Source: Xiphophorus maculatus | Taxonomy: Eukaryota; Chordata; Actinopteri; Cyprinodontiformes; Poeciliidae | DNA: 64,000 nucleotides | Direction: 5' to 3' | Assembly (NCBI RefSeq): GCF_002775205.1 | Contig: NC_036445.1 | Span: 5,972,802 to 6,036,801 of the forward strand | Part shown: positions 7,181 to 61,347 of the stretch, one piece after another | How positions within the stretch are numbered: position 1 is the stretch's first letter | How the letters are laid out: every line of letters begins with the position of its first letter | Program-made: the position numbers and the translations under genes | The notes under the pieces: model-generated | What the model was told of the DNA's origin: nothing | Database searches by the model: none | What the model saw: the letters and a program-made list of their open reading frames with translations, nothing else

Positions 7181-10100
7181 ACCCACTGTCTTTAACACAG
7201 TATGGAAATATAGCACCAGATGTCTTCACGGATGTACGGTTCTGCAAAGTTCTGTGAATCCAGGTCTTAAGAATTAAAAAATATAAGTTGGACGTTGCAT
7301 GCCAATGTGATTACTAACAATAGCTGTACAGGTGTGTTTTAATAACTAAGAAAATCATCTAAAATGTTTATTATTTTGTAAATCCACTAAATTATGTTAT
7401 AACTTGTATGATACACAGTACCTTAGTTATACACATTATATATTATGAGCCAAAGCCATCAGAACTGTCTACCGAGAAATGTTTGGGTGCTTCGTGCTTT
7501 CCACTGCAGAAAAACTTGATTCTGATTTTATTTTCCGGCAGGACTTAACACCTGCCCACTGCCAAAGGCTATAATACCATGTTTAATTGCAATTGTACCA
7601 CTGAGCTTGACAAGCCAGTTAACACTCTGACCTTAACCCAAAAGAGATTCTGTGGAATGATGTCAAGAGTTCAAATAATGCAGATGAGCTGAAGGCCACT
7701 ATTGAACCATACTATACCCTCAATACCATGCAGCAGAGCCACTGCCTTATAGCGTATAGAGGCCCTCACTCGGTATTGAGTGTGTATGCTTTCCATTCCC
7801 TGGATACATCTTTCACTAGGCTGAAACATCTGTTTTGTATATGTGTTTCTTTTACTTTGGTGTAATATTGAAATGTTCAGAGAAAAAGAATTTTGGGTTT
7901 TCATCAGCTATAAGAATGAACTTCAAAATTAACAAAAATAATACCATGAATATATCACTCTATATATAATATACTCTATGTATACTTCATCCAAAAAAAA
8001 TGTATGTGCTTCATATTTTTAGTTGCATTACCAAAAGAAAAATAAATGTTTTCATTCATTTTCCAAACACAGTAGTGTGTTTAATATGCACAGGCACTTT
8101 AAGGGCATGAACATTCACAGTACGTAACTGTTGCTTGAAATTCAGTCTGTATTCATTTCACATATGGCAGCAGTATGTCCAGAGAAATATCAATCATGCT
8201 ATAGGTCGCTTCTTGTTCATTATGACAAAATTTGGACTTCTTATTTTTCCCATGAGTTTAATTTGATGTAATAATTTTATCGTTTTTACAAGAGTGCAGA
8301 TATGTTAAACATCCAGAGGTTATTTTTATGCATAGGGGGAAAAGGGGCAGGGTGAAGTTATTTGTCGGTCTGGTGAAGTGGGAGGAAGTTCCATTTAATT
8401 GGATTTTGATGTGCCCTGTTGTCATGGCACCCAGATCCCAACCTTACACATGAACTTGTCCCTGTGTGTATAAAAGTGTGTAAGACAGAGCAACAATGAG
8501 AATGAGACAAGCAAATGGAGAAATAAAGATATAAATATGAGCAGATGTGAAACCAGGCAGGAGGTGGGGGGTGGGTGAATTTTCTGACACTTCAAGTGAT
8601 CTTCTGAAAGGAGCATTTACTCATGATAGTCTAGCGATTTGAGAAATAAAAGTGCTTGGCTATTTGTCACAACGGGCTCACGCTACAGCTGGTTAAGTGG
8701 CCACGGATGCCTTCACCAGGAGCAAGTGAGATCCCAGCCAAGAGGTTTAGTGCATGTGTAATGAAGGAACACAACGTCCATCTGCATCTCAGTCTGCTTT
8801 GATGTGGCATGTGCTCCATCTTGACTGATCTCAATAGTCAAATGTATCAAATGTCGGAGCAGAAATTCACGTGCAGCATTCATCTGCAAAACTCACAACA
8901 TTTCATAACAAGCAACAGGCTGTAGGGAAAAAAACAGTTTGGACACCAAACTTTGCTTTATGAATTTAATTATTACTTTTGGAAAGGGCAAATCAAGTTT
9001 TTTATTACTAGCAATACATCATAATATAATTATACAGATAAAGTGAAGCTCACTTTACAGACAATTCTTTTGTTTTTTTATTAGTTTTTTGTGCTTTTAA
9101 TTATTCTTTCTATTTTAATTTACAAATAATGATACAGAACCCAACTTTGATTAATTTTACAGGATAACCCAAGTTATTACCAGAAAACCAATCAATAAGA
9201 ACAATGATCAAATATGGAAACAGAATTCTACCAGAAACATTTTGAGGAAGGGTTTCTTTGTAATTTATTAGGAGACATCAGCGTACTTAATATATATATA
9301 TTTTCAAGCCTATGCAAATTATGTCCCTTTTGATATTACCAAACATCCCCAAGAAATGTAACATAATGCACTTGAGGTACATTTCTGTTGAATAATCTTG
9401 AATGCCTAAAATTATACATGCTGCTGATGAATGCATGTAAACCTCTGAAGGGCACTTTATCTCATGTTTGTACACTATAGAACAGACTAGTAGACTCTGA
9501 TTTCTGATTTTTAACAAATTACAAAATAATCCTTGATAAACAAGTTGCTGTCGGTGGTCAGTTCGCTTTAGAAACATTGTTTTGAGTGTAAAGTGCAGGT
9601 CAAATCCCACAAAAATATCCTCATACAAAGCATCAAAACAGATGCTTGGGATGTTGGGTGTGACCTAAATAAGTCCAGATTATATATATCCATCCACTCA
9701 TCCAAAAAAGCACCAAAGAGAGTCAATGAGCGTGTATGTAAACACCAATATTGACATAGCGAGCTATAGCAGCAGCTTAACTTTGCACAGGGGAGCTATA
9801 GCCAATCCAGTGAACCATATAAACACACAGAGGGAAACACTTGGGTTTGAAGGCTCCATATGCCTTATGTCACTTTTATGACTCTGACATCCTTTATGAT
9901 TTGGCGTTTTTCTAAAAGATTTCAACTCAGCTTATTTATGTAGCACCACTTCATAATAATTGTCATCTCAAGGCATTGTGTAGGACAAACAGGTCCAATT
10001 TATATGCAAATATAGAATAATTGAGTCCAAAGTTCATTTGATTCCTTCTCCTTAGTTTAAATACAATTTCATCTAAGTGAATCTGATGTATTCAGATTCA

Positions 10101-29558: not shown

Positions 29559-31037
29559 GTAAGAGACTGTTTTCAGTCTTCACTACCAGTACTAGTTCAC
29601 CTTTAGGTATATTAACGGCTGAAAACGTCCCGTGTTGTCACCTGTGTTTGGTAAAGGTACATACACCCAATACAAGCCTTTGAAAAGGGGCCTTTGTTGC
29701 GCAAATACCTGGCTTCAAATATCAGCTTTTCATTCAAACAGGGTAGCATGTTATGTTGATATGCCACATACGTTGCGCCAGAGGAACCACAGGATAGCCT
29801 GCTGTTTTGTATATGATCCCGTTTATCAAATCAGAAGGCAAATATCACCAGTAACAGAAAATGCACTGCCACTTAACTGTATTTACTTAATCAAATTTAC
29901 TTGAGTAGCTTTTTGATGAAAAAAAAAAAACTTGTATACCTACTTTTTAGTTTTACTTAACAATTACTATTCTAAACTATCGCGACTGTAACCTAGGTAC
30001 ACTCTATCTGCCCACTGTGAGAAACTTCATTGGAAGAAACACGTCTTAACCAAAAGTCCAGTTAGACACAAACAGTTTTCAAGTGAGTTTTTTCTTTTTT
30101 TGTACGAAAACGCTGTTCTTTTAATGTTGTTTTCTGTCTGTTGAATCTGATCTGTCACGTGTAAATCAAGAAGATACAGTTAACACTAGAAGTACTTTAT
30201 CCTGTTTTAACATATATTGACTACCTAGTTTCAGAAGTTTTATATTGAATAAAGGTTTGAAAAAAAAATGTTCTGCCTACATTTGTTGTTTTGTAATTAT
30301 GTTATCTATTTTTGTTGTTGTTTGTTTGTTTCCTTTTTGGTCTTTAAACTACCAGAATTTCCTCAAAACTTTATATTTTTTATCTAATGACATCAATTTC
30401 AATTATATGGTATGATGAATATTAATCAGTTACTCAGTACTTAAGTAACTGTTTTACATAATACTTTTTATTATTATTTAAGCATCAGTGAATGGCAACA
30501 GAAATATATATTCTCTCAAAAACAGCATTGACATACTTATTAGCACATGCTATTTTGCAAAAATTACATTGCCAGACAATGCACAGAGTTTGTGCAGGTC
30601 TAATCAAAAGTTTAATCTCTTTCAGAACCTGACATCAGTCGTCTCCGCTATGTAAAACTTTTATAGTTTTATAAACTTGTGATTTTGTAAAGGAAATGTC
30701 TTCCAAACCTGTGCTATTCAGGTCTGCACAGGCTATTTATAAATAGATTCAATGTGAATTTACCATGATTTAATTAGCTTCTGTTTTAAGACTTTATAAT
30801 CAATACTGTAGTAACACTGTGGGAATATTAAAATGTCTAATTTTTGATTTTGTGGTGTTTTGGTGTCGATGTTATCACGCCTTAGTAAACAACTGAAACA
30901 AATCACTCCAGACTTTCTGAATATTTAGTTTGTTGTGTTAATCTTTATGCATAGTGCTAATAAAATTTATCTTTCTCCATCAGTCGGTTGAAGAATATCA
31001 CACTGAAGGAGCAGTGCCTTGCCTTACACATTGCTAA
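29459..31037 (+). promoter_or_regulatory. two spliced upstream ORFs in the zc3h12a-like leader
   Basis: uORF1 starts at 29,459, crosses the intron (29,559-30,983) and stops at 30,989-30,991 (about 35 codons). uORF2 starts at 29,523 and stops at 31,035-31,037 (30 codons including stop), 22 nt before the main ATG. If the first exon is transcribed as modelled, both could lower translation of the main frame. The transcription start is not known. Confidence 0.4.
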
Positions 31038-31059
31038 AACGGAGTTCAGGGGCTTCAGG

Positions 31060-36731
<5,672 letters not shown>

Positions 36732-37680: not shown

Positions 37681-38851
37681 GAGTCCTCTCAAATATACGT
37701 TTGAATTAGTGATTGTGGCTGTCTTGGAAAAAATAGTAAGGTAAACAAGCTTTAACAAATCTTACCTTTCAACTACATTTAGCTGCTTTCACCAATTTCC
37801 TTGAAATTAATATTTCTGGACTTGGACTGAGCCACAGTGGTCTCATATGTCATGCCAGAAATCACATTTCCCTAGCTTATATCATGTCAACATCTTTTAA
37901 TTGTCTTGTCATATCTGTTTTGACTGTCTCAGAGGTTTGAAACATGCACCACCCAGAGGTAATCATAATGAGTGTCTATTATCAGTGCAATTACAACCTT
38001 ACCAGCATACAACTTTGACCAAATGTAGTTAATGTAGTAATGCAATTTTCAAAAGTGTTTTTTGCAACTAATGCTTTTCTTGTGTACTCTAGAGTCAAAA
38101 CAAGACATAAAGAAAGAAAATGTGACCAATCACCAACAATATGATATTCTGAGCTGCCATTAAATATATGGCAGTTTGCCAGCAGCACTTGAAAGAGACT
38201 TCATTTCTTAACACTTCTTAATATGTGTCAGTGTCTTACATATTACAATGAATTTGAATAAATAAGCAGTACTTGGTCATTTAAAACTACAGTGATTGTC
38301 TTTTGTTCAAATAAATATGTTTACTTGTATTGCTTTTACCTGGGCAAATATTCACAACAAAGAATATTTTCAGATACAAATTGGTTTAAAAGACATGCCG
38401 TTATACATCTGTAGATTTAGTGTGGTCTCGGTCATTAAGAGACTGAGCATGACATTAAAGACTCTTTTTGGTAAAGTTGTTTTTATTTTGTTTTGCTTGC
38501 TTTGCAAATAATCTCTAAGACATATTAATCTGTAGAAAAAATAGAAATTACTTGTTGTATAGACATTTTATTTACATCTCAACCTTTCAAATTCCCCCTT
38601 GTACCTTAGGGGACACTGTACATATTGCCTTGAAACTTTATTTCTATAAGAAAGTTGCTTTACATGAAAAATCATTGATGTCATGTTTGTCCTTTGATAC
38701 ACAAAAAAGTCACACATTAGCTGTCATACATGGGGTATAAGTCATACTTGGTAATTTGAGAGAGATATTTTGCATTATTTATGACATGAATTTTCTTCAT
38801 GTAGCAGGTTTACTGTTCTGTCTAATGTTCTGCCTGGTCCACAGGATTCTT

Positions 38852-38909
38852 TTATTCCCAGGCCATCAACAACTTGTGGAATGGCACAAAGGCACCATGT
38901 CCCGGTTTG
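38852..38909 (-). CDS. CAP-Gly gene last coding exon
   Basis: After 'atttttttggcag'. It completes the domain with CKPGHGAFVPFHKLLMAWE and a TAA. The CK.G.GAFVP block is the expected last strand of a CAP-Gly domain, in the phase required by the previous exon. A candidate polyadenylation signal on this strand is at 38,642-38,637. Confidence 0.85.
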
Positions 38910-41900
38910 CTGCCAAAAAAATGAAATTATATTTAGATACATGACTGGAAATTTACTAGTTTCAAAAGCAAAAACACATGACAACCTCTCATACACATGT
39001 TTAGCCTTTTGCATATATACTGAGCTACTTCTGTTTAAATTATCTGAGTGATCATAGAGAAAATATCTTCAGAAATACCTTTTTGCTATCTTTGTCACTC
39101 AAATCAGACATGCCCATGCCTCACCTTTTAAGCGCTGTAGTCTGAACCTGCTCAGCAGGCTTTAGGACTGCTAACTGAGGTCAACAAGTTAGGGAAAAAG
39201 AAGGTGTGTAAAGGTACTGTTTTCCTCTAACTATTTTTGTTTTAGTATTAGGAAACAATAGAATACTAACCGTCAAATGAACCAAGGCATATTTGTTTAA
39301 AAGTGGTGGATTTACTTTCAAAGAAGTTGTAATATGATTATGTAAAGCACAGCTGAGAACCTTCGAGTTGGAAAAAACAGAACTGCAGTGTAGCACTTAA
39401 ATTCTTCAGACTATATGCACAAAATATATCCACAAGGTATCAATGTATGGGGAAATTGATATTAGTTACCATTCAAAGTAGGTATGTCCATTATGACTGC
39501 CGTCACACAGTGATGCATCATGGCTCTGCAGCTCCACACCCAGGTGGAGCTCTGGCTCCCCCTGCAGGTTCCCCAAGAAACGAACTGTTCCCGTGCTGAT
39601 CCGGCCAGATGGCAGCATGATCCTAACCCGATGACCCAGTTGCAAGTCCATGGGTGAGTGGGGGACAAAAACCCGATGTGGGCCGTGAGACGTTTTCCAG
39701 GATCGCACACTTCAGAAGGGGAAAAATAAGTTAGTTCTACAGCAAAAACTGAAGTATCATATCATGGTTCATTTGTTGTTGTTTTTTGTTTTCTTGGGGG
39801 GGGCTAAATTTGTAGGCTGATGTCTGCATTATTTTTAGGAACGTTTGGTAATCTATGAAATACTTCAATATAGTATTTTCCATGTGTTGTTGACATTCTG
39901 CTAAGTGTCCTAAATGAAGAAGACATTGAATGGGAATGGATAAAAAAAAGTACTCAGGTCATCAGTGGTGTTTAAACAGAGTTCAGTTGTCCCAATCAGT
40001 GTTGACAGATGGGGTGGGTAACCTCCCAGTGGCTTCTTTTGGGCTGGGAAAAACAACTTTAGGTGGGTTGTTAACATTTGGGGAACTTTTCACAACATTT
40101 GAAAATTCTATTAAATTGTTTGTCATTGTATGGCAGAAAACCACAAACTTATTAATTTTATTAAAATATCATGTTCTTGCTCTCATTTCATTAGTTGATT
40201 TATTGTGAAATGTCTACATTCTGTCAAATATGACATCATTGTTGATTGATAGTTGCTGGTCAATCAAGTCTCACTATGAAATGTATTAGTCAATGTCAAT
40301 TGTAAGGAATTTCACTAAGCTACACTGAGGTGTGTTGGCTTGATGTTCAAAGGCAGCATCACGCTGAAGTGGGGAAAATGCAAAAATTATCCTAAGGAAA
40401 AGGAGGCTGATTTGGAGCTAAAATTGTGGATTGCACCTCTCCCAGAGGATTCTAAAGGCCAATGCAAAGAAATCTGACTTGCAAAAGGGTAAGCTGGATA
40501 TTCAGGTTTAGTTTAGTGAGGGATATGAGATTGACATGTGGATTGGTAGACCACCAAGTATAACCAGATTTAGAAGGATAATTATGACTCAAATTTATTA
40601 CAAAATTATTTACAAGTAGAAGAGTAAGAAGATTAGATGTATAACTAAAAATGGCAGCATTTGCTCAGTCAACAACAGGGTTGCTACTCTGAGTTTCTCC
40701 ACTATTATTGTTTTGAAAAGAATAGTATGGAGAAATTCCCAAAGCAGATTTAATGCATACTGCTGACGTTGCTACTGCACCAAACCCCCTGTTGTCTCGT
40801 ACTGCCTTTGTGGTATTTTTTGTAAATGTACAGCTGTGCTGGATAATGAGATTCCCACATGTGACTTATGAACTGGTAGCAGGAGCTCTGAGGCAGCTCA
40901 TCTTCCCAAGCTTGTGACAGAAATGTTTTGTGAAACAGCCTTGAGTTTTCCAATTAAAATTTTTACTTTAGTTGATCTTCCTGCTAATTTATCCAACTTG
41001 AAATATGGTAATTACTGCTGAGTAGACATGAAAAGCACAATTTAATCACATTCCCCAGATAAACATGCTGTGTCAAGGATAAGAGCCTAATTTTATGTTT
41101 AAGAAAGTCAGAAAAACTGATAAGGTCCAAGTTTTTTGTCTTCTTGTTTTAAAATGCCTGGTAATATTGGGTGTTACTAGATCACCTGTCTTATTACACC
41201 AAACAATCCAAACGTTCAATTGACTCCCTTAAATCATAGAGTCTGTTTTTTTTCCCAGAAGTTGGTGTGAAGACTTGATGCAGAAGGAAGCCCAGTAGAA
41301 CAACTACATCTAAGAACTTTCTGAATCTATGATCAAGTGGAAGTGAAATAGGTTAATGTCTCTCAGGATTTGTAACATAGGCAACTCAGTCATAAAGGTT
41401 TTCTTTTACTGACATGCTGGCCTACTCAATTAATGACTGTACCTTGAGGCTGACGATAAAGAAGAAGATGATCTTGAGCTCTGTGGGGTTGACAATGATC
41501 CATGGCTCCCTGATAAGCTGCATGAATGGCTGCCACTTCTTGATGACACTTTGGATCTTCTGTGTTGGCAGAAACCACCTGCTCATCAGAGATAGTTGTC
41601 GGTGTCATTTCCTACTAACAATTGTCTCAATTGCTTAGTTGCTTTAATGTGATTGCTCTGATTTACTTGACTGCTCATTCAAATCATTTCCATTGTCTCT
41701 CTGCTCCTCACAAGTTCCCACCTTCAGCAGTATCTCAGCCTCAGAGAAAACCTGAGGAAAACCACAATCAGAATCATCGCCACAAACTTAACAACCCCTG
41801 CAAACATTTTAGCAAACACACCTGATTACGCAGTTCCTCCTGTTGCCTTTGCAGCTCTGAAAATCTCTTTTCCCACGATGCTCTCTCACAGGCGATCCTG

Positions 41901-42949
41901 GTCTTGATCGACAGAATCTCTCTCTCGATTTTGGTCACTCGCTTGTGGAGTGCGTTAACGCGGTCGGGGCTTCCTGGGATGGCTGCAGTCATCTTGCTTT
42001 CATAAGCTATTAAAGGACAACAGATGATAAAATGTAGTTCCATGAGTCTGACAGATGAAAAGATGATCTACAGATCAAACACTATTTTTGCAGTAACTTT
42101 TAGAAATAATTAAGCACATTTAAGGAAATATTGAGGTTGTAATATTACCTTGCCTTTTTTTAAATAGACAGCTTTTAACATGGAATTCAAACTCTGGTGG
42201 CATTATCAAATAAAATACTGTTAACAGTGAAGACTTGTTCTTGCGTGTTAGTTAAAAGTGTTTTACCTCATCAAATCCTTACCCACATGTCGTGTCACCT
42301 GTCTGCTTTTCTCCTCTGTGATGTGTGTTTCCCTTGGTAGGAATTTGATTGCATTGTATGGACAGATCTGCAGAGCATATGCGTACCATGCATTATGCAA
42401 GTACTGTGAAAAGATGTCATTATAAACTACCAATAGATCTATACAACAACTTACCCACAGAAACCGGCATGTGCAGAGTATTCCCTTGTATGTCCATATA
42501 AAGAATGTCTGTAGGATGTACGCTGTCATTTTTTTTCCACTCACATCATTCTGTTCTAATCAGATAATAAACAAATCAACTGTTTATACTTATTTTTCAT
42601 ATTAATTTTGTTTATCAAACAAAACTCCTAAGGGGATAAAGTACACCCTGTTTAAGGATTTTGTAACTTTACAAGATTGTACTAAACCAAGTAGGTTTGT
42701 TCCTCTGTTGTAGCATCACATTATGACGTGGTTCTACTCTACAGTAATAACAAATTTGCCTTTTGAAAATGTACACAACACTCACCTTTTTCAGTGGTTC
42801 ATCTGTATATTGAAAAAAGAATCCAAAGTGAGGTCACATGTAGATAATATCTTTCATTTCTGATCAATAAGCTTCTATTTCAGGTCTCTGATAAACATTA
42901 ATGTGGTGCATAAGGCTCACTGACCTGTTGCTATGTGCCAGCTTTGCAT
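38852..42949 (-). CDS. CAP-Gly and coiled-coil protein, eight coding exons, unrecognised family
   Basis: Exons, in order on the minus strand: 42949-42925, 42802-42786 (17-nt microexon), 42367-42283, 42006-41822, 41751-41712, 41578-41443, 39709-39470, 38909-38852. Their summed length is 786 nt (261 aa) with every junction in phase. Residues about 54-104 form a charged coiled coil (VNALHKRVTKIEREILSIKT). About 118-165 are a Ser/Arg-rich linker. About 185-256 are a CAP-Gly domain (GHRVRIMLPSGRISTGTVRF, LGVEL, DGSHNGHTYFE, CKPGHGAFVP). CAP-Gly domains bind microtubules and EEY/F tails. Odd points: the usual GKNDG reads as a degenerate LCDGS and the usual Trp before GVEL is Leu-preceded His, so tail binding may be altered. 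The ATG has a weak Kozak context, and an upstream non-coding exon is possible. It is convergent with the zc3h12a-like gene. The middle exons (41,751-41,443) are the least certain; all three frames of 41578-41443 are open and phase decided the choice. I cannot name an orthologue. Confidence 0.72.
39470..39709 (-). CDS. CAP-Gly gene coding exon 7 (CAP-Gly core)
   Basis: 240 nt after 'cccttctgaag' and before 'gtaactaa'. It contains most of the CAP-Gly fold (LGHRVRIMLPSGRISTGTVR, LGNLQGEPELHLGVEL, CDGSHNGHTYFE). The intron upstream is 1.7 kb. Confidence 0.85.
41443..41578 (-). CDS. CAP-Gly gene coding exon 6 (Ser-rich linker)
   Basis: After 'gatgagcag' and before donor 'ctcaaggtacag'. The frame fixed by both neighbours reads GSHSCSLSGSHGSLSTPQSS and onward, a Ser/Arg-rich linker typical of sequence beside CAP-Gly domains. 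The acceptor could lie 3 nt upstream at the preceding 'gatgag', adding one codon. Confidence 0.5.
41712..41751 (-). CDS. CAP-Gly gene coding exon 5
   Basis: 40 nt after 'gtggttttcctcag', ending at donor 'acttgtgagg'. It encodes VFSEAEILLKVGT. A stronger exon context 'gaaggtggga' upstream would change the phase and break the frame, so this donor was preferred. Confidence 0.5.
41822..42006 (-). CDS. CAP-Gly gene coding exon 4 (coiled coil)
   Basis: 185 nt between 'cctttaatag' and 'gtgtgttt'. It encodes YESKMTAAIPGSPDRVNALH and a heptad-rich helix ending in QRQQEELRNQ. An internal in-frame ATG at 41,992 could serve as an alternative start. Confidence 0.72.
42283..42367 (-). CDS. CAP-Gly gene coding exon 3
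   Basis: 85 nt after 'tatgctctgcag' and before 'gtaaggat'. It encodes ICPYNAIKFLPRETHITEEK and onward to RQVTRHV. It is joined in phase 1 to the coiled-coil exon. Confidence 0.65.
42786..42802 (-). CDS. CAP-Gly gene 17-nt microexon
   Basis: An acceptor 'ttttttcaatatacag' and a consensus donor 'aaaaaggtgagtgt' bracket 17 nt. It enters in phase 1 and leaves in phase 0, joining the flanking exons without a stop and encoding (D)EPLKK. Confidence 0.55.
42925..42949 (-). CDS. CAP-Gly gene coding exon 1
   Basis: Encodes MQSWHIAT and one extra base, then the donor 'caacaggtcagtg'. The upstream sequence would be 5' UTR. The start was chosen because it is the first ATG in phase with the microexon. 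Confidence 0.5.
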
Positions 42950-48982: not shown

Positions 48983-51900
48983 GTATGGGTCAATTTCTGT
49001 GAATTTAAAACTTTTGTTGAGATTTATAAACATGGTAATCCTTGTGGTTTTAATCACTTACTAATTTCTAAATCCTGAAAAGTATAGGATAAGCACAGAA
49101 CAGGGTCAAACAAACTGAATTTTTATTTTATTCTCAAAAAGACAGAAAAACACAGGAAAAGATATTAAAATAATTTAGAAAATTATATTGTGGATTATGA
49201 GTAAGAAAAAAAAATTGTGCACCAAATTCTAAAATCCTATCTTGTCCCATTCTCTGAACTTGACTGTCAGTGTTTTTAGAGGCCATGCAGTGTCACTTCT
49301 TCAAACATCTTATCTGATCATTCTATTTCCTTTTAGCATTTCCTTAGATTTTCCATGTAGTAATCTTTGCTCCAACAGTCTTTTTCTTTAGTGATGAAGC
49401 TTTAGTCACTGAGTTCACATGAAGCCCCTGACAGTTGACTTCATTCACAATTTTCTTTATGGAAAAGCTGTACCTGATACATCCAGGTGCTTTTATAACT
49501 CTACAAGAGTGATCCTTTGCACTTTAACAGCCCTTCATAATTTTCTTCTGACCCCTAAGGTGAAGTAAAAACATACCTTGAAAATTAAATGCTCACTCTG
49601 AATTTGACTCTGGATCAGTCTGACATTTCTAAATAGATTCTGTTTGTTAAAATGTTAAAAGAAAATGTCATGAACAGAAACCCCAAAGTGCAAATAAAAA
49701 AAAAAAATGCTTTTTCATGTGGATGAAAAATTATATGAATAACTGTGTTAACAACAGGCAAAAGTACATCTAATCTTACTGGATTGTTTGTTCTGTAGTT
49801 TTAAATGACATATAACCATAGAAAAAAACAACATAATGGAGATATAAACAAGTAATCCTTTCCAAGTTATTATTGCATTATTTATGAAATTATTATTAAT
49901 TATTAAAGCCATTCCTGTAGGCAGCATAAATGTGAGCACAAAAGATAAATGCAAGTAAAAAAAAAGATATTTTACAAAACTACTAAATGTGAAATTCAAA
50001 GCAAAAGTCAGACAAGCCAAATTAAACAGATTTACACTTAATGTCAGTAGCTCTGCTGATGTTAAAGGGGAAGACTTCATAACTACTGCCCTGGCCTAAA
50101 GCCAGTTTACTAGCTTGAAAAAGTAAAAAGCAATAATTTTTCTCCTGAAATTTTTATCCAATTAGCACAGTGCTAATTGGATAGCACAATGGCTCCAAAT
50201 TCAAGCCATTTTTTTTTTAATTTGGAGATTAAAAATTAGATTTAATCATTAATCGTTCAGTGGACACTGTTGTATATTCTTGCAAGAGCTGTTTTTAAAA
50301 TCAACTTTACCAGCAGTTTCCTTAATAAGATGGGTTCATACAATACAGTACCTCACCTGTAGGGAGGTAATTACTGAACCCTGGCAAACAGTCAACAGTT
50401 TACAACCACAATTCTTAATGTCCTGCACTATATGTTTATTGCAAAGTCCTGCAGGCTGGGCTTTATAATCTTCCAAGACATATGTTTGTAACTCTGCAGT
50501 AAACTTTATATCTGGTATCTTTCCCATAATGTCTGTTTGTGCAGGTATTTTTTGCCTCCTCCTATCAGGATTTCTGCTGCCTTCAGTATTTATGTCTGGG
50601 CAAACCACAGCTGCAGACATGAGCACAACTTCTTCCCCTACTGACCCAGCAACAACGACAACTGCCTCCACCATGAATACCACCACTTCTGCAGCAAACC
50701 TCACCATGACCATTTCAACAGCAACCTCAAATACCAACCAGGCTGCTAGCATGACTAGTAGCAGTTCAGCAGCTACCCTTACTCAGAGCACCATGTCCAC
50801 CACTTATGGAGGTACTGTAATGTCTACTGCCATCCAGTCTCCCACAACCAACTCAGATTCAGTATCTCAAAACACCCACTCTACATCAACCACCTCTGGA
50901 GGCCCAACATCAGTAAGCACCCACTCTCCTTCAACCACCTCTGGAGGTCCATCATCACATAGTACCCACTCTGCCTCAAGCACCTCCGGAGGTTCCTCAT
51001 CATTCAGCACCCACTCTCCTTCAACCACCTCTGGAGGTCCATCATCACATATCATCACTCATCACTCTGCCTCAAGCACCTCCGGAGGTTCCTCATCATC
51101 CAGCACCCACTCTCCTTCAACCACCTCTGGAGGTCCATCATCACATATCATCACTCATCACTCTGCCTCAAGCACCTCCGGAGGTTCCTCATCATCCAGC
51201 ACCCACTCTCCTTCAACCACCTCTGGAGGTCCATCATCACATAGTACCCACTCTGCCTCAAGCACCTCCGGAGGTTCCTCATCATCCGGCACCCATTCAA
51301 TTTCAGCCACCTCAGAAGGCACGGTATTTAGCTGCTCTCAAATGCCTCACATGTTATAAGTCAGGGTAAATGCAGGTAGACAACCAGAATACCAACTTTG
51401 CTTTCTCAACTTATATGTATACCTCTATACATATACTTGTAAGTACACAAGTAGTCCTCCTTTTATAGCAAAGAATTGTGAAATAGAACTTGGGAAGATT
51501 CTGACTATAACTTTTTTGTGAAAGATGTATGTTTTTCAGCTGGCAGCTGGTTTCTACAAAAAGGATTGCATCCCATCTGACTTTTAGATTCTTTAGGAAC
51601 TAGTGATGCGCTGACAAATTTTGGGTTAAGAGAATCCGCTTGACTAGCCTATGAGTCTATATAGACTCAAAGTCATATTAGTGTTTTTAGTAATACTAAG
51701 GTGTTTCAAAAATGTTGTCAGGGAAGTGCAGTAGCTGTAAGAAGGTTTTTAATCATCCACTGTATTTTCTAGGATGGCATGTCAGCTGTTCGGCCAGTCT
51801 GTTACAACAGACTTTGGACAGGTGCTAGTTATTTCACTCTGACCATTCAGATCTCTTACAGTTTTGGTTGTTTTGTACCTGATGTTTTGGGGTGCTAAAA

Positions 51901-54900
51901 TTGCCCATCTGCCACAAGATGTCAATTGGTATCTACTTTGGGAACCTTTCATCAAATTGGCAAAGGAGTGCACTGAGCTTTCAAGAAGCCCTGCACATGT
52001 TGCCTCATACTCTGTTTTATTCTATTAAACTTTCAATCACAGTATGCTATGGAACCTCAAGCAATAAAATTCTGTCTTGTAATGTATTTTCTAGTTGCAG
52101 TTATAGTCCAAGATGTTATTATGAAACCCTATATATAAAGTTTAACATTGATGGCCTATATTAGGTTTGAAATTCTCATTTGGGAGAAAGGCCTGAAGTC
52201 GGTCTTGAGTTTTGTGATAGTGTCAACTTATAAACCCTTCATCATTGTACTTTGCCAAGAAATAAAGAAATACTAAAGAGATAACAGACTAGCTAACTAG
52301 TAGCCCCAAAATGATCCTGAGATTTGATTTACCTCTCATTTCCCTTTCTACACTTTAAAACAATCTACATTACACTTGATCTCCACTTCAAAATCTAAAA
52401 CACTTAGATGGATCAAACCTGACCCTGATTATAGAATAAATGGGGTACCTTTAAAACAATTTCAAATTTCTTCAACCTTTTCATTTTCAATGCTTTTTAG
52501 AAACAGAACCACCTTGAAATTCAGTCAGCCAATCAAATATAATTATTGAAAACATTAAATATTGGATTTTTAGTTTTTCTAACATTATTGTTAAGCTCTT
52601 GTGTTGTCTTGTTGTGGTGCACCAAAAGTCTGAGAATGGTTATCAACCACAAATCTACGATGAGGGTATCTCTAATTGGAACCACAGGCAAGCTTGGAGT
52701 CTCAGCGGAGAGCATCCTGTTGGGAATATATGGAACCATGAGTTCTTTAAGATGAGGTGGAGAGATATGATTACCAGGAAAGCAGAAGGAGAGTCCAAGG
52801 CTTAAATTAGAGAAAGACCATGTCTCTTGCAGTTCTTCATAACTTGTTGAAGATGTCTGGATAACCTGATAGTTTTTAGTGAATTCTTAGAATATACTGA
52901 TTGTGAACAATTACAATATACCTGCTTTAAAATTTCCCAAATATGACGCCATTTCTCTATTTCAGGTAATATGACTGAGGAAAATAAAAACACCACATCA
53001 AATTCTTCAATGGAAATGGCAAGTCAATTTTATTATTATTAAAAATATAATATTATCACCATGTTTTTTATTTGTACTATATTGACCTTAATCGTGTGTC
53101 ACTCAATCTGTCTAAAACAGATAAATTGCCCTTCCTTCTCCTGCTATTGCTCTGATTGCTACTCAAAGTACAACAGTCAGAATAAATCTTATTGTTCTGC
53201 TGGAGAATCATGTCAGGTAAGGAAGTAAATAATTATTTTATACTCTGCTAATCAAGTCAATTAAATGATCAGATTATTAGTGTAGAAGGATTGTGAAAAA
53301 ATAAACATTTACAAAAGCATGTTTGTGTAATTTTGCAATGGATCAGCTGCTGAAATCAATGGACATGTGGTACAATGTGAGCTGCAGTGCCTCTTGTGTG
53401 GAAGATTGGAACAACACCTCTCAGCGTAACTGTTCTGTGAATTGCTGTAATTCCACTAGATGCGTTAAAGACATTTTTGCATCTATGATGATGATGATGA
53501 CAACCACAGGTAAAATACAGAAATTGCATTTGCATATTTCATCTTGTCTTGCTTGTCTTTCTCTTTACAGGTATATTTAAAAGTACTTGTTTATGTGTGT
53601 GATCTTGCACTCTTACATACCGTATGCTTTTCTTACATAATTTTAGTAGCTGCAACCACGACAACAAACGCTCCGCCAACAACAAGAACAACCTCAACAA
53701 CAGCAAACAAAGTAAAGGCCAAAATCTGTGAATGACCTTAGCATTTCCCTTCTCCTTACTTGTTAATATCTATAAGTTTACTATTTGCTTTGTACTTAAG
53801 ACTTTCAATTAACTATCAGAACTTGAATGTTCTGACATAATCACCCTGTTTTCTGTGTTGTGTTTTTTTTTTTTTTTACAGGGAAACAAATGTCACAAGG
53901 GTAGCTGTACTGGTGAAAACTGTTATAAAAATTTCAAGGATCTTGAAACCTGTTCTTCTACAAACCCACACTGTCAGGTATGATCTGTGAAAGGATTTTT
54001 TATAGCTTTTCTTTTATTTGTCTATGTGACATAAACCCAACACTCAACAGTAGGTGTAAAGTAAAACAGTCTAAGTAAAAGTCTAAAATAACTACAGTAT
54101 TTTTTTTCTGTTTGAAGTACAATTACCTCATTCGAAAAAAATATTTTCTCTAATAAGAGAGGGATTGATCAATGTTCTTGTACCTACTTAAATTGCACTG
54201 TGTGTTGTGGCAAGAGAAACTTGTTTGTCAGTTCCACTTTTGTAAAACAGTACAAGATAAGTTTTGCAAGTATGTTCATGCTCTCACACAGAAGATCTTA
54301 AAGTACATAGAATTGTTTTTATTTATTTACTACATTATTACTACCGTTGTTGTTGTTGTTGTTTTTAACAACAGCAATAATTTATTTTTGATTAATTTAT
54401 TAAAATATATATTTGTTAGATCACATTAAAGGGTGATTTTTTTTCTGTATCTTTCAACATGAGATGAGGCTACTGGGATAAAATATGCATTTACTCCAAG
54501 GCTTTTTGCATGTCTTTTATGGAGTGTGCAGAAGTGTGAAGAGGTTTGCAAGGTATCTAGTGCTACATGAGAATTAAAAAATAAAATAAAATGACATATG
54601 ACATAATATATCACAAAAAAGTCAGGAATATTGAAAGGTTGCATTAAGATTTTAAAACCGCTTTAAGTCTTTCTCTTTTTTCCTTTTTTATTTCTGAAGC
54701 ATAAATGAAAATAGACTAACTTTATGTTGCTTAGCACAATTTTATTCACTGGGCTTCACATTTAAAGAGTTAAAAACTTGTTGAAGTTCAAGCACCTACA
54801 TTTTTATTTTGATACTATTTTTTTTATATTATATATTGTCTTTTTCAGTTAAAAAAAGAGACTGCTAGCTCCGGCGTTGTTTGGACAGCAGGGTGCACCA

Positions 54901-55097
54901 ATTGCACTGGATATGCTGCCTGTACTGGAACCACAAACCCCCCATGTAACCTGGAGTGCTGCACTGCCACCACAACCTCCTGCCTGATTTTGAACGGCAC
55001 ACTGAATGTTCCGTCTTTCGCCACAAGAGGTCCCTATCTTCATATTGAGTTGATTGCTTCCTTGGTTTGCCTGCTTGCAATCACTCTGCTTCTGTGA
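48952..55097 (+). CDS. GPI-anchored mucin-like surface protein with two Cys-rich (LU-like) modules
   Basis: Exons 48952-48982, 50545-about 51318, 52966-53018, 53121-53216, 53347-53509, 53647-53711, 53882-53977 and 54849-55097. Exons 1 and 2 join to a signal peptide (MASVVFKKDT then GIFCLLLSGFLLPSVF). A Thr/Ser-rich stalk with 14-16-residue repeats follows (HSPSTTSGGPSSH / HSASSTSGGSSS). Then come two Cys-rich modules, each split over two exons: exons 4+5 and 7+8, separated by a Thr-rich exon 6. Exons 4 and 7 are both 96 nt in phase 0-0, and each module ends in C-x3-CC-x4-6-C, as in Ly6/uPAR (LU) domains. The C-terminus (LIASLVCLLAITLLL-stop) is a hydrophobic tail with no cytosolic part, as in GPI signals. 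Several N-x-S/T sites occur. It is probably an extracellular, heavily O-glycosylated protein. The end of exon 2 is uncertain: the phase-1 donor needed is a weak GC site at 51,319. LU assignment is by Cys pattern, not a search. Confidence 0.75.
50156..50182. repeat. 27-bp near-perfect palindrome
   Basis: ATCCAATTAGCAC and GTGCTAATTGGAT around a single A. Each arm has a CCAAT/ATTGG box. It lies in intron 2 of the mucin/LU gene, about 360 bp upstream of the stalk exon. Confidence 0.85.
50545..51318 (+). CDS. mucin/LU gene coding exon 2 (Ser/Thr repeat stalk)
   Basis: It begins after 'tgtttgtgcag' with the hydrophobic core of the signal peptide. The body is Thr/Ser-rich. Near-identical copies start at 50,988, 51,084, 51,180 and 51,270 (spacing 96, 96 and 90 bp). 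The open frame runs on to a TAA at 51,359. The only phase-1 exit near the end is 'gaaggcacgg' (a GC donor), so the border is provisional. An earlier GT donor at 50,813 ('ggaggtactg') would skip the repeats. The repeats may be collapsed or polymorphic. Confidence 0.65.
50880..51310 (+). repeat. coding minisatellite in the mucin stalk
   Basis: Alternating units for HSPSTTSGGPSSH and HSASSTSGGSSS form a 90-96 bp higher-order repeat. Two copies carry an extra HIITH segment, which accounts for the 6-bp length difference. The near-identity of copies indicates recent expansion. Confidence 0.85.
52966..53018 (+). CDS. mucin/LU gene coding exon 3
   Basis: 53 nt after 'tttctctatttcag'. Only phase-1 entry is open, giving NMTEENKNTTSNSSMEM. 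It exits at 'gaaatggcaagt', a GC donor of near-consensus form (GCAAGT). Confidence 0.5.
53121..53216 (+). CDS. mucin/LU gene coding exon 4 (module 1, first half)
   Basis: 96 nt, phase 0 to 0, between 'gtctaaaacag' and 'gtaaggaag'. It encodes INCPSFSCYCSDCYSKY through CSAGESCQ, with six Cys. Confidence 0.7.
53347..53509 (+). CDS. mucin/LU gene coding exon 5 (module 1, second half)
   Basis: After 'ttgcaatggatcag' and before 'gtaaaatac'. It contains NVSCSASCVEDWNNTSQRNC and NCCNSTRC, then an odd MMMMM run from (ATG)5 at 53,486-53,500. Confidence 0.65.
53647..53711 (+). CDS. mucin/LU gene coding exon 6 (Thr-rich linker)
   Basis: 65 nt, entered in phase 1 and left in phase 0. It encodes VAATTTTNAPPTTRTTSTTA and onward, a short O-glycosylation-type linker between the two Cys-rich modules. 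Confidence 0.65.
53882..53977 (+). CDS. mucin/LU gene coding exon 7 (module 2, first half)
   Basis: 96 nt, phase 0 to 0, after a long T-tract plus 'acag' and before 'gtatgatc'. It encodes GNKCHKGSCTGENCYKNF through CSSTNPHCQ. It matches exon 4 in length, phase and Cys spacing. Confidence 0.72.
54849..55097 (+). CDS. mucin/LU gene last coding exon (module 2, second half, GPI signal)
   Basis: After 'gtctttttcag'. It encodes GCTNCTGYAACTGTTNPPC, LECCTATTTSC, a spacer and the hydrophobic tail, ending in TGA. A polyadenylation signal AATAAA lies at 55,357-55,362. Confidence 0.75.
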   Translation, partial: LKKETASSGVVWTAGCTNCTGYAACTGTTNPPCNLECCTATTTSCLILNGTLNVPSFATRGPYLHIELIASLVCLLAITLLL

Positions 55098-57050: not shown

Positions 57051-57219
57051 CTTCCCCTACATTTTGAAATCACATTTTCCATCATGAACATTTCGTAAGT
57101 TCCGCTCCCCCCTTCTCGAGTTGCGTGTCCTTTGAAGGCTCTAGTCCCATTTGGGTCACTGACTTGAAGCTTAATTCAAACCAATCCCAAAATCCTTCCA
57201 CCCTTTCTGATTGTGCTGA

Positions 57220-57701
57220 TGACAGCCCATATGTGACGTCAAGACTGATCCTGACGAGTGCGTGGCACCGTGAGTGCGCGCGCGCGCTGGGGTTCGGGCT
57301 GAACCAGCAGCGGAGAAAACATCTGGATCGTAAAGGAGTCAAAAAAGGATGTCGGACCGCGCTGAGCTGCTACCGCTGCTGCTGGGCCGTGTCTCTTTCA
57401 GCTGCCTATTCGGTCGGTGATTCCCTCATGGAGGGGGAATAACTGGGTCACTCGAAACTCCTCCGCGGATTCACATTGGAGGAAAAAAAAAGAAAACGTG
57501 CTGCCGAAGTTGTCTCAGTTCTTCACTATGGATCAGTCCGTTGCAATTCAGGAAACTTTGGGAAAAGAAGAAAACTGCATTGTAGTATCCTTTGAGCCGC
57601 GCATGGTTTCTAAATGATCCAAGATTCAAAATAAGGACCTCCTGCTTCAAACTCACTAACTGGACCGACAGATTCTGGAGATACAACCCAGGTTGAGGCC
57701 T
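57220..57701 (+). promoter_or_regulatory. CpG-rich promoter and first exon of the 176-aa gene
   Basis: The local CpG density is far above the surroundings ('gagtgcgcgcgcgcgctggg', 'cggaccgcgctgagctgcta'). A likely donor 'cctgtaagat' follows 57,701 and would join to 58,392. The exon appears non-coding; its short open frames (for example from 57,528) end within it and a TGA lies in the frame of the main ORF. A YY1-type CAAGATGGCG is at 57,884-57,893. Confidence 0.5.
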
Positions 57702-58416
57702 GTAAGATTAAGCTGTGGGAGTTGATCGGGTTTTTATCACTAACTGCGTCATTTGGTTTGTGATTTCGAACCAGAGTCAGCCTGAACAGTTTGCGCAGTT
57801 TTGAGCAGGAAAAACGGGTTTTGTCTTAAATTAGTTCCCCAAAATAGCCTTTTCCATAGAACTGCAGTTGCGCATGTCATCCACAAGATGGCGACATTGT
57901 ATCAACAGCTCATGATTTCTTCTTGTTGGGAGTGGTTAAGGAGGTTTGATAGCATGTAAACATGAAATAATTTGCATACATAAAATAGATTTGAATTAAG
58001 GATACAGCTCTTGAAATGTCTATGCAAATGTTTTATTACATATTTTTATGTTTTTGGCTGAATAGATGAGTAAATATATTTAAATTACACTTTCCTTAAC
58101 TAAACTGCTAACATGCTGCACAATGTGACATCTTACTTGAGGATTGCTCAGAAAGCAGACTTCTTGGACTGGTAGAGTGTGCAAAAGAGCATGCGTAAGT
58201 TCAAACAAATTAAGGAAGCTTTACATGGCTTTTAACCTTGATATTGTTTGTTATATTTGTGCAACAAAAACCTCATCCTGCCTTTTGATTTTTAAATCTT
58301 TATTTCCTTCTGAATCACAAACTTAACTAAAACTGACTCTATCATTGGTATTTGTCTAATACTTGTTGCAATTATGTAAAATTATTTGCAGAATCTTTAT
58401 TTATACCCATCGGAGA

Positions 58417-58489
58417 ATGGCCATTACTGCTGATGATGTGTCACTTGAAGACATTATACCCATCACCCTTGACTTTGCTGTTGTTGAAG
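58417..58489 (+). CDS. 176-aa gene coding exon 1
   Basis: The exon begins at 58,392 after 'ttatttgcag' and ends before 'gtaatttt'. It encodes MAITADDVSLEDIIPITLDF and AVVE. Confidence 0.55.
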
Positions 58490-61347
58490 GTAATTTTCTT
58501 CTGACATTAAATATACAGTGTCTTGCAAAACTATTCTGTTTAGCTCTGTCAATCTTCACTTTTACCCTGTCAACCAAAGCATCCTCACATCATGATGTTG
58601 CCACCACCATGTGTCACTGTTGGGTTGATAAATTCAAGGTGATGTTTGTTGTTAGTTTCGCTCCACAAATGAGTTTGCATATAATGCAAAAATGTTTCAG
58701 ACTTGGCGTCATTTGACCAGGACACGTCCTTCCACATGTCCGCTGTGTCCCATACATTGCTTGTGGCAAGCATTAAGCTGGATTTATTTTCTTTCAATAG
58801 CTGATTTATTATTGATACTTTTTCATAAAGGTTATATTTGGGGAGCGCATAAATAATAGTTTTTCCGTGACCATTAACAGAATGTCCAATATTAACTGGA
58901 TCTTTTCAGCTCCTGCTTAAGCAATAATCAAGCACTGCTCTTGATTATTGCTCTTTTTGCCAAACAGTGGCTTTAACAGCACAAAATTAAGTTGTAGAAG
59001 CTTGTGATATTGTTTTATAACACAACATTGTTTTAGATTTATTCACAGCTTTATCTCTGCTCTATTGGGTGTGTGTCTGGTGCTGTTTGATCACTATGTT
59101 CCTCTAACTAACCTCATTTAATACATTATATGTAGATAGACTATTCACAAATTGCTGAAGGGAGTTGGTTTCACTAGATTTTATTGGAAATATGAGAGTA
59201 AAAGGGGCTGAATAAAATGCAGATCACTTTTCTGATTTTTTGTAACACAAACTTTGAAAACCATGGGAGAATGGTGGTAGGAGTTTGTCTTGCAGTCGGT
59301 GGGTTCAACGGGTATGAATACTTTTGCAAGACCTGTATATTTGCTGGCACTTTTTAATAAAATTGTTATTGCCTCTAAACTGAAAAGCAAATAAAGTACA
59401 GTATGAAGCACCCTGACATATTTCTCATGCTGCTTTCTCTATAGTTTCTTCTCCAGAACAGCTTGTGGTTGTGGGTAAGTTGCCCTCGTTTATTTGAAGT
59501 CTCAAATATCATATCATACATAACTGATCTACCGCACAGAAAATGAACCTTGCAATGTTTTTCCCCTGCCACACTTATTATCTTATTGTAGGTGCAGACA
59601 CCAGAGTGAGAATGAGCTACAAGAATGAAAAATTAGAGCTCAGGCTTCCGTTTGGGTCCCACTCTCGCTTCTTTCTCGGTGAAGTCAACAAGGCATGGAG
59701 TGGTAGGGTGAACTGTTTGTGATCTGTTTGCAACAGCCAGCATTTGACAAAATCTTCCAAAGCTTTTGAACATTTTAAGGAGCAAAATATAACCAAATTC
59801 TATAATATGTTTGTTAGACAAGTTGCACAGATGTATTGCAAAAACATACGTCATCATGTCTGAACAATGACATAAGAATTAGACAAGCCTTTAGTTAGAA
59901 GGAGGTCTCTGTTGCTAGGGATGGTCACATTCACCACAAGCTCACTTTCACATTGGAAGCATCACATGAACAAAATGTCCCTTTTGTTGTTGTTGTACTC
60001 AAAGTAGAGCTGTTAATGCTTTGCTGTGAAAGATATCACATTGTTTTCTCTTAATCTATTATTCTTGCTGTCACTGTCCGTTCGTCCATTAGATGTGTGC
60101 AGGTTGCCCACACAAGTACCCAAGTTCGAGTGGACCAAGAAGTACAAGAAATCTATCAAAAGACAGGAAGCTACGAAGCAAGCCATTGCACCATTGGAGG
60201 TGTTATCTACTAAAAATAACCAGCACCAGAAAATCGGTTTGTCATCTCTGTTTTATTTATAAAAAGCTGGGGTCTGTGTAACCTATTGAACTCCTGACAG
60301 TGTCAGAGCAGAGAGGGATGAAGCAGACGCTTGTTTCTGTGTCTTTGGTCGACAATTTTATGCTTTGGAGAATTGCATCATAGCGATTTCAAAAACACCA
60401 CTTCCTTTGGACGAAACTCTGTCATTCTTCATAGCGTATATTGCAGTACCTTATCACTGGTGAAACAACACCATGAATAACGGGACAATTGCTGAGGCAG
60501 ACAAATTTGGTAGCACACCTGGCAAAGATATAGAAAATGTTTGAAAATAAATTAATCTTTTAATGCTGTAGCATAATTTCTCACTGAGAAAAAAAAAAGG
60601 AGTCTGAATATTGTACCTCAACAGTTCTTTGCAGTATGAATATTGCACACACCAATATAGGATTGAAACTATACAATGGGCCACTGGTATTCACGGGGTA
60701 AGGAAACACAACCCTCCATGAATAGCAAAAATTTGCGTTTCATTAGGCCTATATCAAATGCAGAAGAGAGTATTTTAAAAACGGCGATCTTAAATCGTCT
60801 CAGTATCTTAGGTCACTATTGCCACCCTAAGACAAAATGTACTTGTTATTCTTAATGTAAGCACAACATCTTGTGAGTTGCATTTTATTTTTGTACAATA
60901 TTTCATTTCTTGCAGAATATAGCCTATGTTACATCTGTGTTTTGTGTGCTCCTGTAGACACGCATGCAAAACAAAATCAAATGCACAAACACTAAGACAG
61001 ATCTCTGCAAGCTGAGTGAAACATTTCTGACCTTGTTTGCTACTTGGTGTTGGTACAAAACAAACGTAAACTTTTTTGAGCGTTGAATTCCCAACCACAC
61101 TCTAAGCAGGGCATGAAGTATTTCCCAGTTGCATTTTTGCAGCTTGTTCTGCGTGTTTTGTCTTTTCACTGCAGCAAGGAAATGCAAAAACCCCTCCTCC
61201 TACTACAACGTTAGCATGGGCAGGTCTGAAACACAATGTACATTGATCCTCTGCACAGAATGCGTGGGAGCGGCACAAGGACATGTCTGGGATGACGAGA
61301 GACTCTGGTATGAAAATCATTCCCAAAGCATTGATTGTTTATTCTGA
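58417..61347 (+). CDS. unrecognised 176-aa protein, five coding exons
   Basis: Exons 58417-58489, 59445-59474, 59592-59702, 60093-60236 and 61175-61347. Every internal intron is phase 1 and the sum (531 nt) stays in frame. The first ATG has a good Kozak context (A at -3, G at +4). The N-terminal part is acidic and hydrophobic (DDVSLEDIIPITLDFAVVE). Next come a beta-rich block (ELRLPFGSHSRFFLGEVNKA), a basic stretch (FEWTKKYKKSIKRQEATKQA) and a Cys-containing C-terminus (QCTLILCTECVGAAQGHVWD) ending DCLF. There is no signal peptide or membrane segment. I cannot place it in a family. The donor at 60,237 ('atcggtttgt') is weak, and 'ctctggtatga' at 61,308 might be a further donor, in which case the protein continues beyond the last exon given here. 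Confidence 0.55.
58512..59340 (-). mobile_element. Tc1-like DNA transposon relic with transposase fragment
   Basis: The left end 'tatacagtgtcttgcaaaac' and the right end, reverse-complemented, 'tatacaggtcttgcaaaagt' are inverted repeats flanked by TA. On the minus strand 58,797-58,585 an open fragment reads WSNDAKSETF and then NPTVTHGGGNIMM. This matches the WSDETK.E.F ... PTVKHGGGSIM block around the second catalytic Asp of Tc1 transposases. The rest of the transposase is missing or broken, so the copy is dead. It lies in the first coding intron of the 176-aa gene. Confidence 0.75.
58920..58952. repeat. 13-bp inverted repeat inside the Tc1 relic
   Basis: Arms AGCAATAATCAAG (58,920-58,932) and CTTGATTATTGCT (58,940-58,952), with a 7-nt loop. 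Confidence 0.8.
59445..59474 (+). CDS. 176-aa gene coding exon 2
   Basis: Only 30 nt, between 'gctttctctatag' and the perfect donor 'gtaagttg'. It encodes VSSPEQLVVV. Confidence 0.55.
59592..59702 (+). CDS. 176-aa gene coding exon 3
   Basis: 111 nt between 'atcttattgtag' and 'gtagggtg'. It encodes GADTRVRMSYKNEKLELRLP through FFLGEVNKAWS, the most protein-like part. Confidence 0.65.
60093..60236 (+). CDS. 176-aa gene coding exon 4
   Basis: 144 nt after 'gttcgtccattag'. It encodes DVCRLPTQVPKFEWTKKYKK and onward, very basic. The donor is weak, and read-through would stop 27 nt later. Confidence 0.55.
61175..61347 (+). CDS. 176-aa gene last coding exon (provisional)
   Basis: After 'tcttttcactgcag'. 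It encodes ARKCKNPSSYYNVSMGRSET and the Cys-rich end, stopping at TGA. It may be an internal exon if the donor-like site at 61,308 is used. Confidence 0.5.

What the first reader, a model, noticed from the sequence alone, without database searches (positions are those of the whole stretch)
38852..42949. Undescribed small CAP-Gly protein gene assembled from eight short exons
Exons of 25, 17, 85, 185, 40, 136, 240 and 58 nt join in phase to 261 codons: a coiled coil, a Ser/Arg linker and a C-terminal CAP-Gly. I know no named vertebrate protein with this short layout. It sits tail-to-tail with the zc3h12a-like gene, where human ZC3H12A has MEAF6 as neighbour.
Basis: partly seen in the sequence, partly recalled or inferred. 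Interest (0 to 1): 0.75.

Follow-up and report, generated by a model that had tools for sequence, protein, structure and literature searches.

The report
Small fish CAP-Gly cytoskeleton gene
A stretch of what looks like a fish chromosome most likely holds a real gene for a small cytoskeleton-type protein (a coiled coil, a serine/arginine linker and a CAP-Gly domain), but its first exons and middle are uncertain, and whether it is new could not be checked without animal sequence databases.

Summary
The eight segments are at the stated coordinates, have GT/AG borders and join in phase into 261 codons plus a stop. Best supported are the CAP-Gly domain (Pfam E 3e-16; joining the last exon lifts it from 38.3 to 62.4 bits) and the coiled-coil exon 4. 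Exons 1-3 have strong splice sites but weak coding signal, and exon 4 has a better start codon (214 aa). No longer CAP-Gly protein shows upstream. I read it as a real gene for a small coiled-coil/CAP-Gly adaptor with a non-canonical ligand site. 'Undescribed' is untested. New member of a known kind; modest interest.

The parts
41822..41992 (-). Exon 4 from its own ATG: MTAAIPGS..., coiled-coil helix (57 codons); the exon's acceptor is at 42006
   Evidence: start context top 8.8% of ATGs in window, donor top 0.3% of GTs; helix 9-56, mean pLDDT 92.3; heptad score reached by 1 of 2000 shuffles; kept in 8 of 8 gene-finder runs
41712..41751 (-). Exon 5 (40 nt), end of coiled coil; a competing donor makes it 30 nt (41751-41722)
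   Evidence: acceptor top 0.7%; donor top 2.6% against top 0.8% for the rival donor; the gene finder takes the 30-nt form in 8 of 8 runs; of the two models compared only the 40-nt form keeps the Ser/Arg frame
41443..41578 (-).
   Evidence: 20 Ser of 44 codons, 15 TCN and 5 AGY; 0 of 20,000 dinucleotide shuffles reach 20. Against: coding score -8.2 bits in this frame versus +15.5 in another open frame
39470..39709 (-). Exon 7, most of the CAP-Gly domain
   Evidence: CAP_GLY 38.3 bits for this exon alone; coding score 29.5 bits
38852..38909 (-). Exon 8, end of CAP-Gly, stop codon TAA
   Evidence: adding it lifts CAP_GLY to 62.4 bits and completes the profile to position 65/65; acceptor top 1.0%, coding score -5.8 bits
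38637..38642 (-). First AATAAA poly(A) signal after the stop (others begin at 38572 and 38487)
   Evidence: pattern scan; sequence
42283..42367 (-).
   Evidence: coding 0.19 bits/codon, acceptor top 5.3%, donor top 1.0%; the gene finder often extends it to 42403
42786..42802 (-).
   Evidence: donor top 0.1% of GTs, acceptor top 10.3%
42925..42949 (-).
   Evidence: start context top 62% of ATGs, donor top 0.6%; replaced by another first exon when the finder sees 4 kb upstream
30984..36731 (+). Convergent neighbour: zc3h12a-type (regnase) gene
   Evidence: Pfam UBA_6, RNase_Zc3h12a, Regnase_1_C; gene-finder exons 30984-36731

Best explanation
This is a functional protein-coding gene of what is probably a bony fish, convergent with a zc3h12a-type gene. 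Its core product, about 214 aa from the ATG at 41992, has three parts: a coiled coil, a basic serine-rich linker and a single C-terminal CAP-Gly domain. Inferred mechanism: the coiled coil makes a homodimer or joins a partner, the basic linker gives electrostatic contact with acidic microtubule (or actin) surfaces, and the CAP-Gly module docks a partner through a site other than the usual EEY/F groove, because residues of that groove are replaced. Shown by sequence: the CAP-Gly family match across exons 7 and 8, the helix in exon 4, the open frames, the replaced groove columns. Less sure: the linker frame and the 5' end. Inferred: dimerisation, microtubule association, ligand change. I put about 0.85 on a real CAP-Gly gene with exons 4, 7 and 8, and about 0.45 on the whole statement including mechanism.
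For: CAP_GLY E 3e-16 over 58 of 65 profile positions; the exon 8 join adds 24 bits. Heptads and helix. Linker +8 net charge with no acidic residue, 24 Ser of 65. Of 19 columns identical in 5 reference CAP-Gly domains this one keeps 12, among them 7 of 9 glycines; the 7 losses all lie in columns 29-49, where 1 of 8 is kept, against 11 of 11 elsewhere (the split was chosen after seeing the data). Dynactin-1 EEY/F residues are F52, W57, K68, N69 and R90 (PMC3583065, passages); at the matching columns F (5 of 5 references), W (5 of 5), K (4 of 5) and N (5 of 5) are G, H, S and C here. Serine-rich regions next to CG2 restore F-actin binding of CLIP-170 fragments (PMC9062740, passages).
Against: No RNA, no homologous gene and no second species. 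The rival middle scores 15-22 bits above the five-exon model at the four penalties tried. One other block, 56-64 kb on the plus strand, reaches 68.8 at -16 with a model that uses none of the inpp5b-type exons there; that is above the fixed five- and eight-exon models, though below the free best model here. Coding scores of exons 1, 6 and 8 are negative. Splice and codon tables were recalled, not trained. The AlphaFold model of exon 7 alone is poor (mean pLDDT 55.6), and its fold search gave 0 matches at E<=0.001, though the first row is a CAP-Gly chain (E 0.49). R90 is not informative: the five references have P or K there. The CAP-Gly domain is slightly acidic (net -2), unlike the positive groove side reported for CLIP-170.
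Confidence: 0.45

Rival explanations
1. Same gene, different middle: exon 5 ends at 41722, exon 6 begins at 41559 and is read in another frame (...KKIQSVIKKWQPFMQLIREPWIIVNPTELKIIFFFIVSLK...), and a 14- or 29-nt exon ending at 40859 restores the CAP-Gly frame; there is then no Ser/Arg linker.
For: Higher splice plus coding score at the four penalties tried; the 30-nt exon 5 is taken in 8 of 8 and the 117-nt exon 6 in 8 of 8 free-search runs; all three frames of exon 6 are open.
Against: Needs an extra microexon; only 2 candidates of 9-40 nt passed the thresholds in the 1.73-kb intron, sharing one donor. Leaves unexplained the 20 Ser codons of mixed TCN/AGY type (0 of 20,000 shuffles). The segment has no Pfam match at E<=1, nor has the Ser/Arg segment.
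Confidence: 0.25
2. The CAP-Gly exons are the 3' end of a longer known-type CAP-Gly gene (CLIP, KIF13B, CEP350 class) whose upstream exons lie beyond 43 kb or outside the window.
For: A late CAP-Gly occurs in KIF13B (construct 1685-1784, PMC8511506 passage; that this is near its C-terminus is recalled). Splice-site strength in exons 1-3 leaves room for upstream exons.
Against: 0 of 22 upstream minus-strand ORFs of 75 aa or more reach a Pfam cut-off; shorter exons were not tested. Exon 4 has a good start context. The genes seen upstream (mucin-like at 50.5 kb, inpp5b-type from about 57.5 kb) lie on the other strand. Coil plus linker match no PDB chain better than E 0.28.
Confidence: 0.08
3. A decaying duplicate of a CAP-Gly gene: the domain still scores but its ligand residues are eroding and the gene is not expressed.
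For: 7 of 19 reference-invariant columns are replaced, including 2 of 9 glycines; codon scores of exons 6 and 8 are negative.
Against: No stop or frameshift in the joined exons; the losses are confined to columns 29-49 while 11 of 11 invariant columns elsewhere are kept, which random decay would not be expected to do; splice sites intact and AATAAA signals present.
Confidence: 0.1

Closest known systems
TBCB (tubulin-binding cofactor B)
   Same: Short protein with one C-terminal CAP-Gly domain; 1whg (mouse TBCB) is the best PDB match of the 214-aa core (E 2.2e-6).
   Different: No N-terminal ubiquitin-like domain found by Pfam; GKNDG not kept; a Ser-rich basic linker instead.
CLIP-170 / CLIP-115 / CLIP4
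   Same: CAP-Gly next to Ser-rich stretches; 2e4h (CLIP-170) is the best match of the CAP-Gly part alone (E 5e-7); 37-40% identity over the domain.
   Different: One CAP-Gly, coil on its N-terminal side, groove residues replaced; zinc knuckles of CLIP-170 not seen.
CYLD CAP-Gly domains
   Same: Precedent for CAP-Gly domains with ligands beyond EEY/F tails: ubiquitin, NEMO and other peptides (PMC8511506, PMC13376213; passages).
   Different: No deubiquitinase domain; weaker sequence match (1whl E 0.0011).
MEAF6
   Same: Would occupy the same convergent place beside ZC3H12A.
   Different: A recalled MEAF6 N-terminal segment gave no tblastn hit in the window at E<=1; MEAF6 has no CAP-Gly (recalled).

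Membership tests
CAP-Gly domain family (PF01302) | Profile match above the gathering score | tested here: met
   59.5 bits in the full model, cut-off 26.5
CAP-Gly domain family (PF01302) | Conserved glycine scaffold | tested here: met
   7 of 9 glycine columns invariant in 5 references are kept; the 2 lost lie in the groove segments
CAP-Gly domain family (PF01302) | GKNDG loop and aromatic groove for EEY/F tails (typical, not universal) | tested here: not met
   F, W, K, N columns read G, H, S, C here; motif context
TBCB | N-terminal ubiquitin-like domain | tested here: not met
   no such Pfam match in the 261-aa model; a missed upstream exon cannot be excluded
CLIP-170 family | Two or more CAP-Gly domains | tested here: not met
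   one CAP-Gly stretch in the model; none in 22 upstream minus-strand ORFs of 75 aa or more
KIF13B | Kinesin motor and FHA domains upstream (recalled) | tested here: inconclusive
   none in the 22 upstream ORFs, but short exons were not tested and a gene continuing outside the window cannot be seen
Known fish gene annotation | Named or predicted gene at this locus in a fish assembly | not testable with these tools
   no animal genome or protein collection; the genome search unanswered six times

The most novel reading that the evidence does not exclude
A fish CAP-Gly protein family, absent from the set of human CAP-Gly proteins that I recall, in which the CAP-Gly fold is kept but the C-terminal-tail-reading groove has been given up, so that a coiled-coil dimer with a Ser/Arg microtubule-contact linker uses CAP-Gly as a plain docking module.
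Probability: 0.25. Interest if true: 0.45.

Novelty: new member of a known kind. Interest (0 to 1): 0.3.

Why it matters
If real and conserved among fishes, it would add a small member to a short list of vertebrate CAP-Gly proteins, and a natural test of what the CAP-Gly fold does once its tubulin-tail groove is gone. If it is already annotated in fish genomes as an uncharacterised locus, which is quite possible, it is only a name for an existing entry.

Tried and rejected
Coil plus linker against PDB: 3 matches at E<=10, best E 0.28, taken as chance coiled coils. The whole core also matched 2 amylosucrase chains at E about 0.5, taken as chance. Pfam hits of the coil (Snapin_Pallidin 21.0 bits against cut-off 29.6, and 8 more families up to E 1, none reaching its cut-off) were rejected as generic coiled-coil matches; six below-cut-off hits to 5 of the 13 upstream ORFs were taken as chance. 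An EB-binding SxIP-type motif ([ST]x[IL]P) was sought in the 261-aa model and not found. Literature: in the listings and passages that I saw no protein of this kind is described. The searches were CAP-Gly + zebrafish + uncharacterized protein + coiled-coil (1 paper, listing); zc3h12a + inpp5b + synteny (0); CAP-Gly domain + teleost (12, listing); GKNDG + CAP-Gly (8, listing, two read in passages); CAP-Gly family names (1, passages); CAP-Gly phylogeny (9, listing, one read in passages); atypical CAP-Gly (1, passages). This is no proof of absence. Repeats in the locus: only chance-like pairs. At exon penalty -6 the gene finder strings together noise exons even around zc3h12a, so only -12 to -18 were used. 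Structure of the CAP-Gly exon alone: low confidence, not used as evidence.
Full report
What was checked. That a join can be made proves little: with a low exon penalty a home-made gene finder strings noise exons even around zc3h12a. The core therefore had to be tested piece by piece.

CAP-Gly. The joined protein matches PF01302 at E 3e-16, 59.5 bits against a cut-off of 26.5. Exon 7 alone gives 38.3 bits. So exons 7 and 8 and their junction are secure. In PDB the CAP-Gly part matches 37 distinct sequences at E<=1, best CLIP-170 at 5e-7; 35 bear names of known CAP-Gly proteins and 2 are called RIKEN cDNA 1700024K14, which I recall as a CLIP4 relative. With the whole core, TBCB is first at 2.2e-6, and 2 of 39 matches are chance hits to amylosucrase.

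Coiled coil. Exon 4 has the second-best coding score per codon of the set (0.49 bits, after 0.51 for the short exon 5) and a donor in the top 0.3% of GTs. Its 57 codons from the internal ATG fold as one helix in all but the first eight and the last residue, mean pLDDT 92.3 without an alignment. The heptad score of a 49-residue stretch, which lies in exon 4 but for its last residue, is reached by 1 of 2000 residue shuffles.

Linker and its frame. All three frames of exon 6 are open, which 268 of 20,000 dinucleotide shuffles match. Against it, the codon-usage score is -8.2 bits in this frame and +15.5 in another. A rival structure with a 30-nt exon 5, a 117-nt exon 6 and a 14-nt extra exon scores higher at the four penalties tried: 95.9 against 74.4 for the five-exon model at -12, and 65.9 against 50.4 at -18.

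Exons 1-3. The start context at 42949 is poor (top 62% of ATGs); that at 41992 in exon 4 is good (top 8.8%). Coding signal in exons 1-3 is weak (-0.28, 0.33 and 0.19 bits per codon). Their donors are strong (top 0.6, 0.1 and 1.0%), and mainly for that reason the eight-exon model outscores the five-exon one at three of four penalties (89.8, 75.8 and 61.8 against 74.4, 66.4 and 58.4) but not at -18 (47.8 against 50.4). With 4 kb upstream the finder takes another first exon (44985-44976), reached by 0, 0, 0 and 1 of 100 shuffles. Leader exons seem as likely as coding ones.

Whole-gene score. In eight runs (four penalties, two minimum exon lengths) the finder's best model here scores 74-132, against 160-198 for zc3h12a, the positive control. 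Comparison blocks (two overlapping 11.5-kb stretches between 8 and 25.5 kb, both strands) give 34-46 at -14 and 20-31 at -16, where this stretch gives 104-113 and 86-95. Seven further blocks at -16 give 31-47 except one, 56-64 kb on the plus strand, with 68.8, whose model uses none of the inpp5b-type exons there. So the finder supports a gene here, but not its exact structure.

Surroundings. The plus-strand neighbour is a zc3h12a-type gene (UBA_6, RNase_Zc3h12a, Regnase_1_C), convergent with this one. Upstream lie a mucin-like ORF with 45/96-nt repeats and two exons matching the INPP5B PH domain, one above its Pfam cut-off (49.5 bits) and one below (21.3 against 29.2), all on the plus strand. 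From memory, INPP5B and ZC3H12A share human chromosome band 1p34, so the window looks like a bony-fish version of that region; no call names the organism. A recalled MEAF6 segment had no hit. All 22 minus-strand ORFs of 75 aa or more upstream of the gene (list), and exon 3's own ORF, were scanned: none reaches a Pfam cut-off, and six below-cut-off hits to five of them are taken as chance. There is no sign that this is the end of a longer CAP-Gly gene, though shorter exons were not tested.

Groove residues. Aligned with CLIP-170 CG2, CLIP4, CLIP-115, TBCB and CEP350, the domain keeps 12 of the 19 columns that are identical in these five, among them 7 of 9 glycines. The 7 losses all lie in columns 29-49 (1 of 8 kept there, 11 of 11 elsewhere; the split was chosen after seeing it). 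The residues that bind EEY/F tails are named for dynactin-1 as F52, W57, K68, N69 and R90 (PMC3583065, passages), and GKNDG is called almost always present (PMC3806363, passages). By position in the motif (dynactin itself was not in the alignment) the F, W, K and N columns read G, H, S and C here. The five references have P or K where I place R90, so it is not informative. The usual ligand site is therefore probably lost while the rest of the fold is kept. CYLD shows that CAP-Gly domains can take other ligands (PMC8511506, PMC13376213; passages).

Mechanism. Most likely a coiled-coil dimer whose basic Ser/Arg linker (+8 net, no acidic residue, 24 Ser of 65) contacts microtubules or actin, with CAP-Gly docking an unknown partner. 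The sequence features are shown; dimerisation, filament contact and ligand change are inferred. In CLIP-170 fragments, serine-rich regions beside CG2 restore F-actin binding (PMC9062740, passages).

Novelty. I could not test whether fish annotation already has this gene. Seven literature searches showed no description in what I saw of them. Verdict: probably a real gene, a new or uncharacterised member of a known kind, modest interest.

Noticed in passing
window 50469-51356 (+), with 53305-53577 and 54813-55094: Ser/Thr-rich mucin-like ORF with 45- and 96-nt tandem repeats, followed by Cys-rich ORFs, the last with a hydrophobic tail; perhaps one cell-surface gene. No Pfam match above cut-off.
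   Followed up: partly
window 57366-57614 and 58360-58713 (+): Exons matching the INPP5B PH domain (E 2.5e-4, below cut-off; E 5.1e-13, above it): start of an inpp5b-type gene near the zc3h12a-type gene.
   Followed up: partly
window 57138-57416 (+): The gene finder's best model for 56-64 kb rests on this segment (68.8 bits at penalty -16); its ORF has one below-cut-off Pfam hit (PpoB2). Unexplained.
   Followed up: partly
window 7623-7862 (+): ORF that looks by eye like a fragment of a Tc1-type transposase (recalled); no Pfam match.
   Followed up: partly
window 41443-41578 (-): All three frames of exon 6 are free of stops, seen in 268 of 20,000 dinucleotide shuffles; alternative reading of the exon is possible.
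   Followed up: partly
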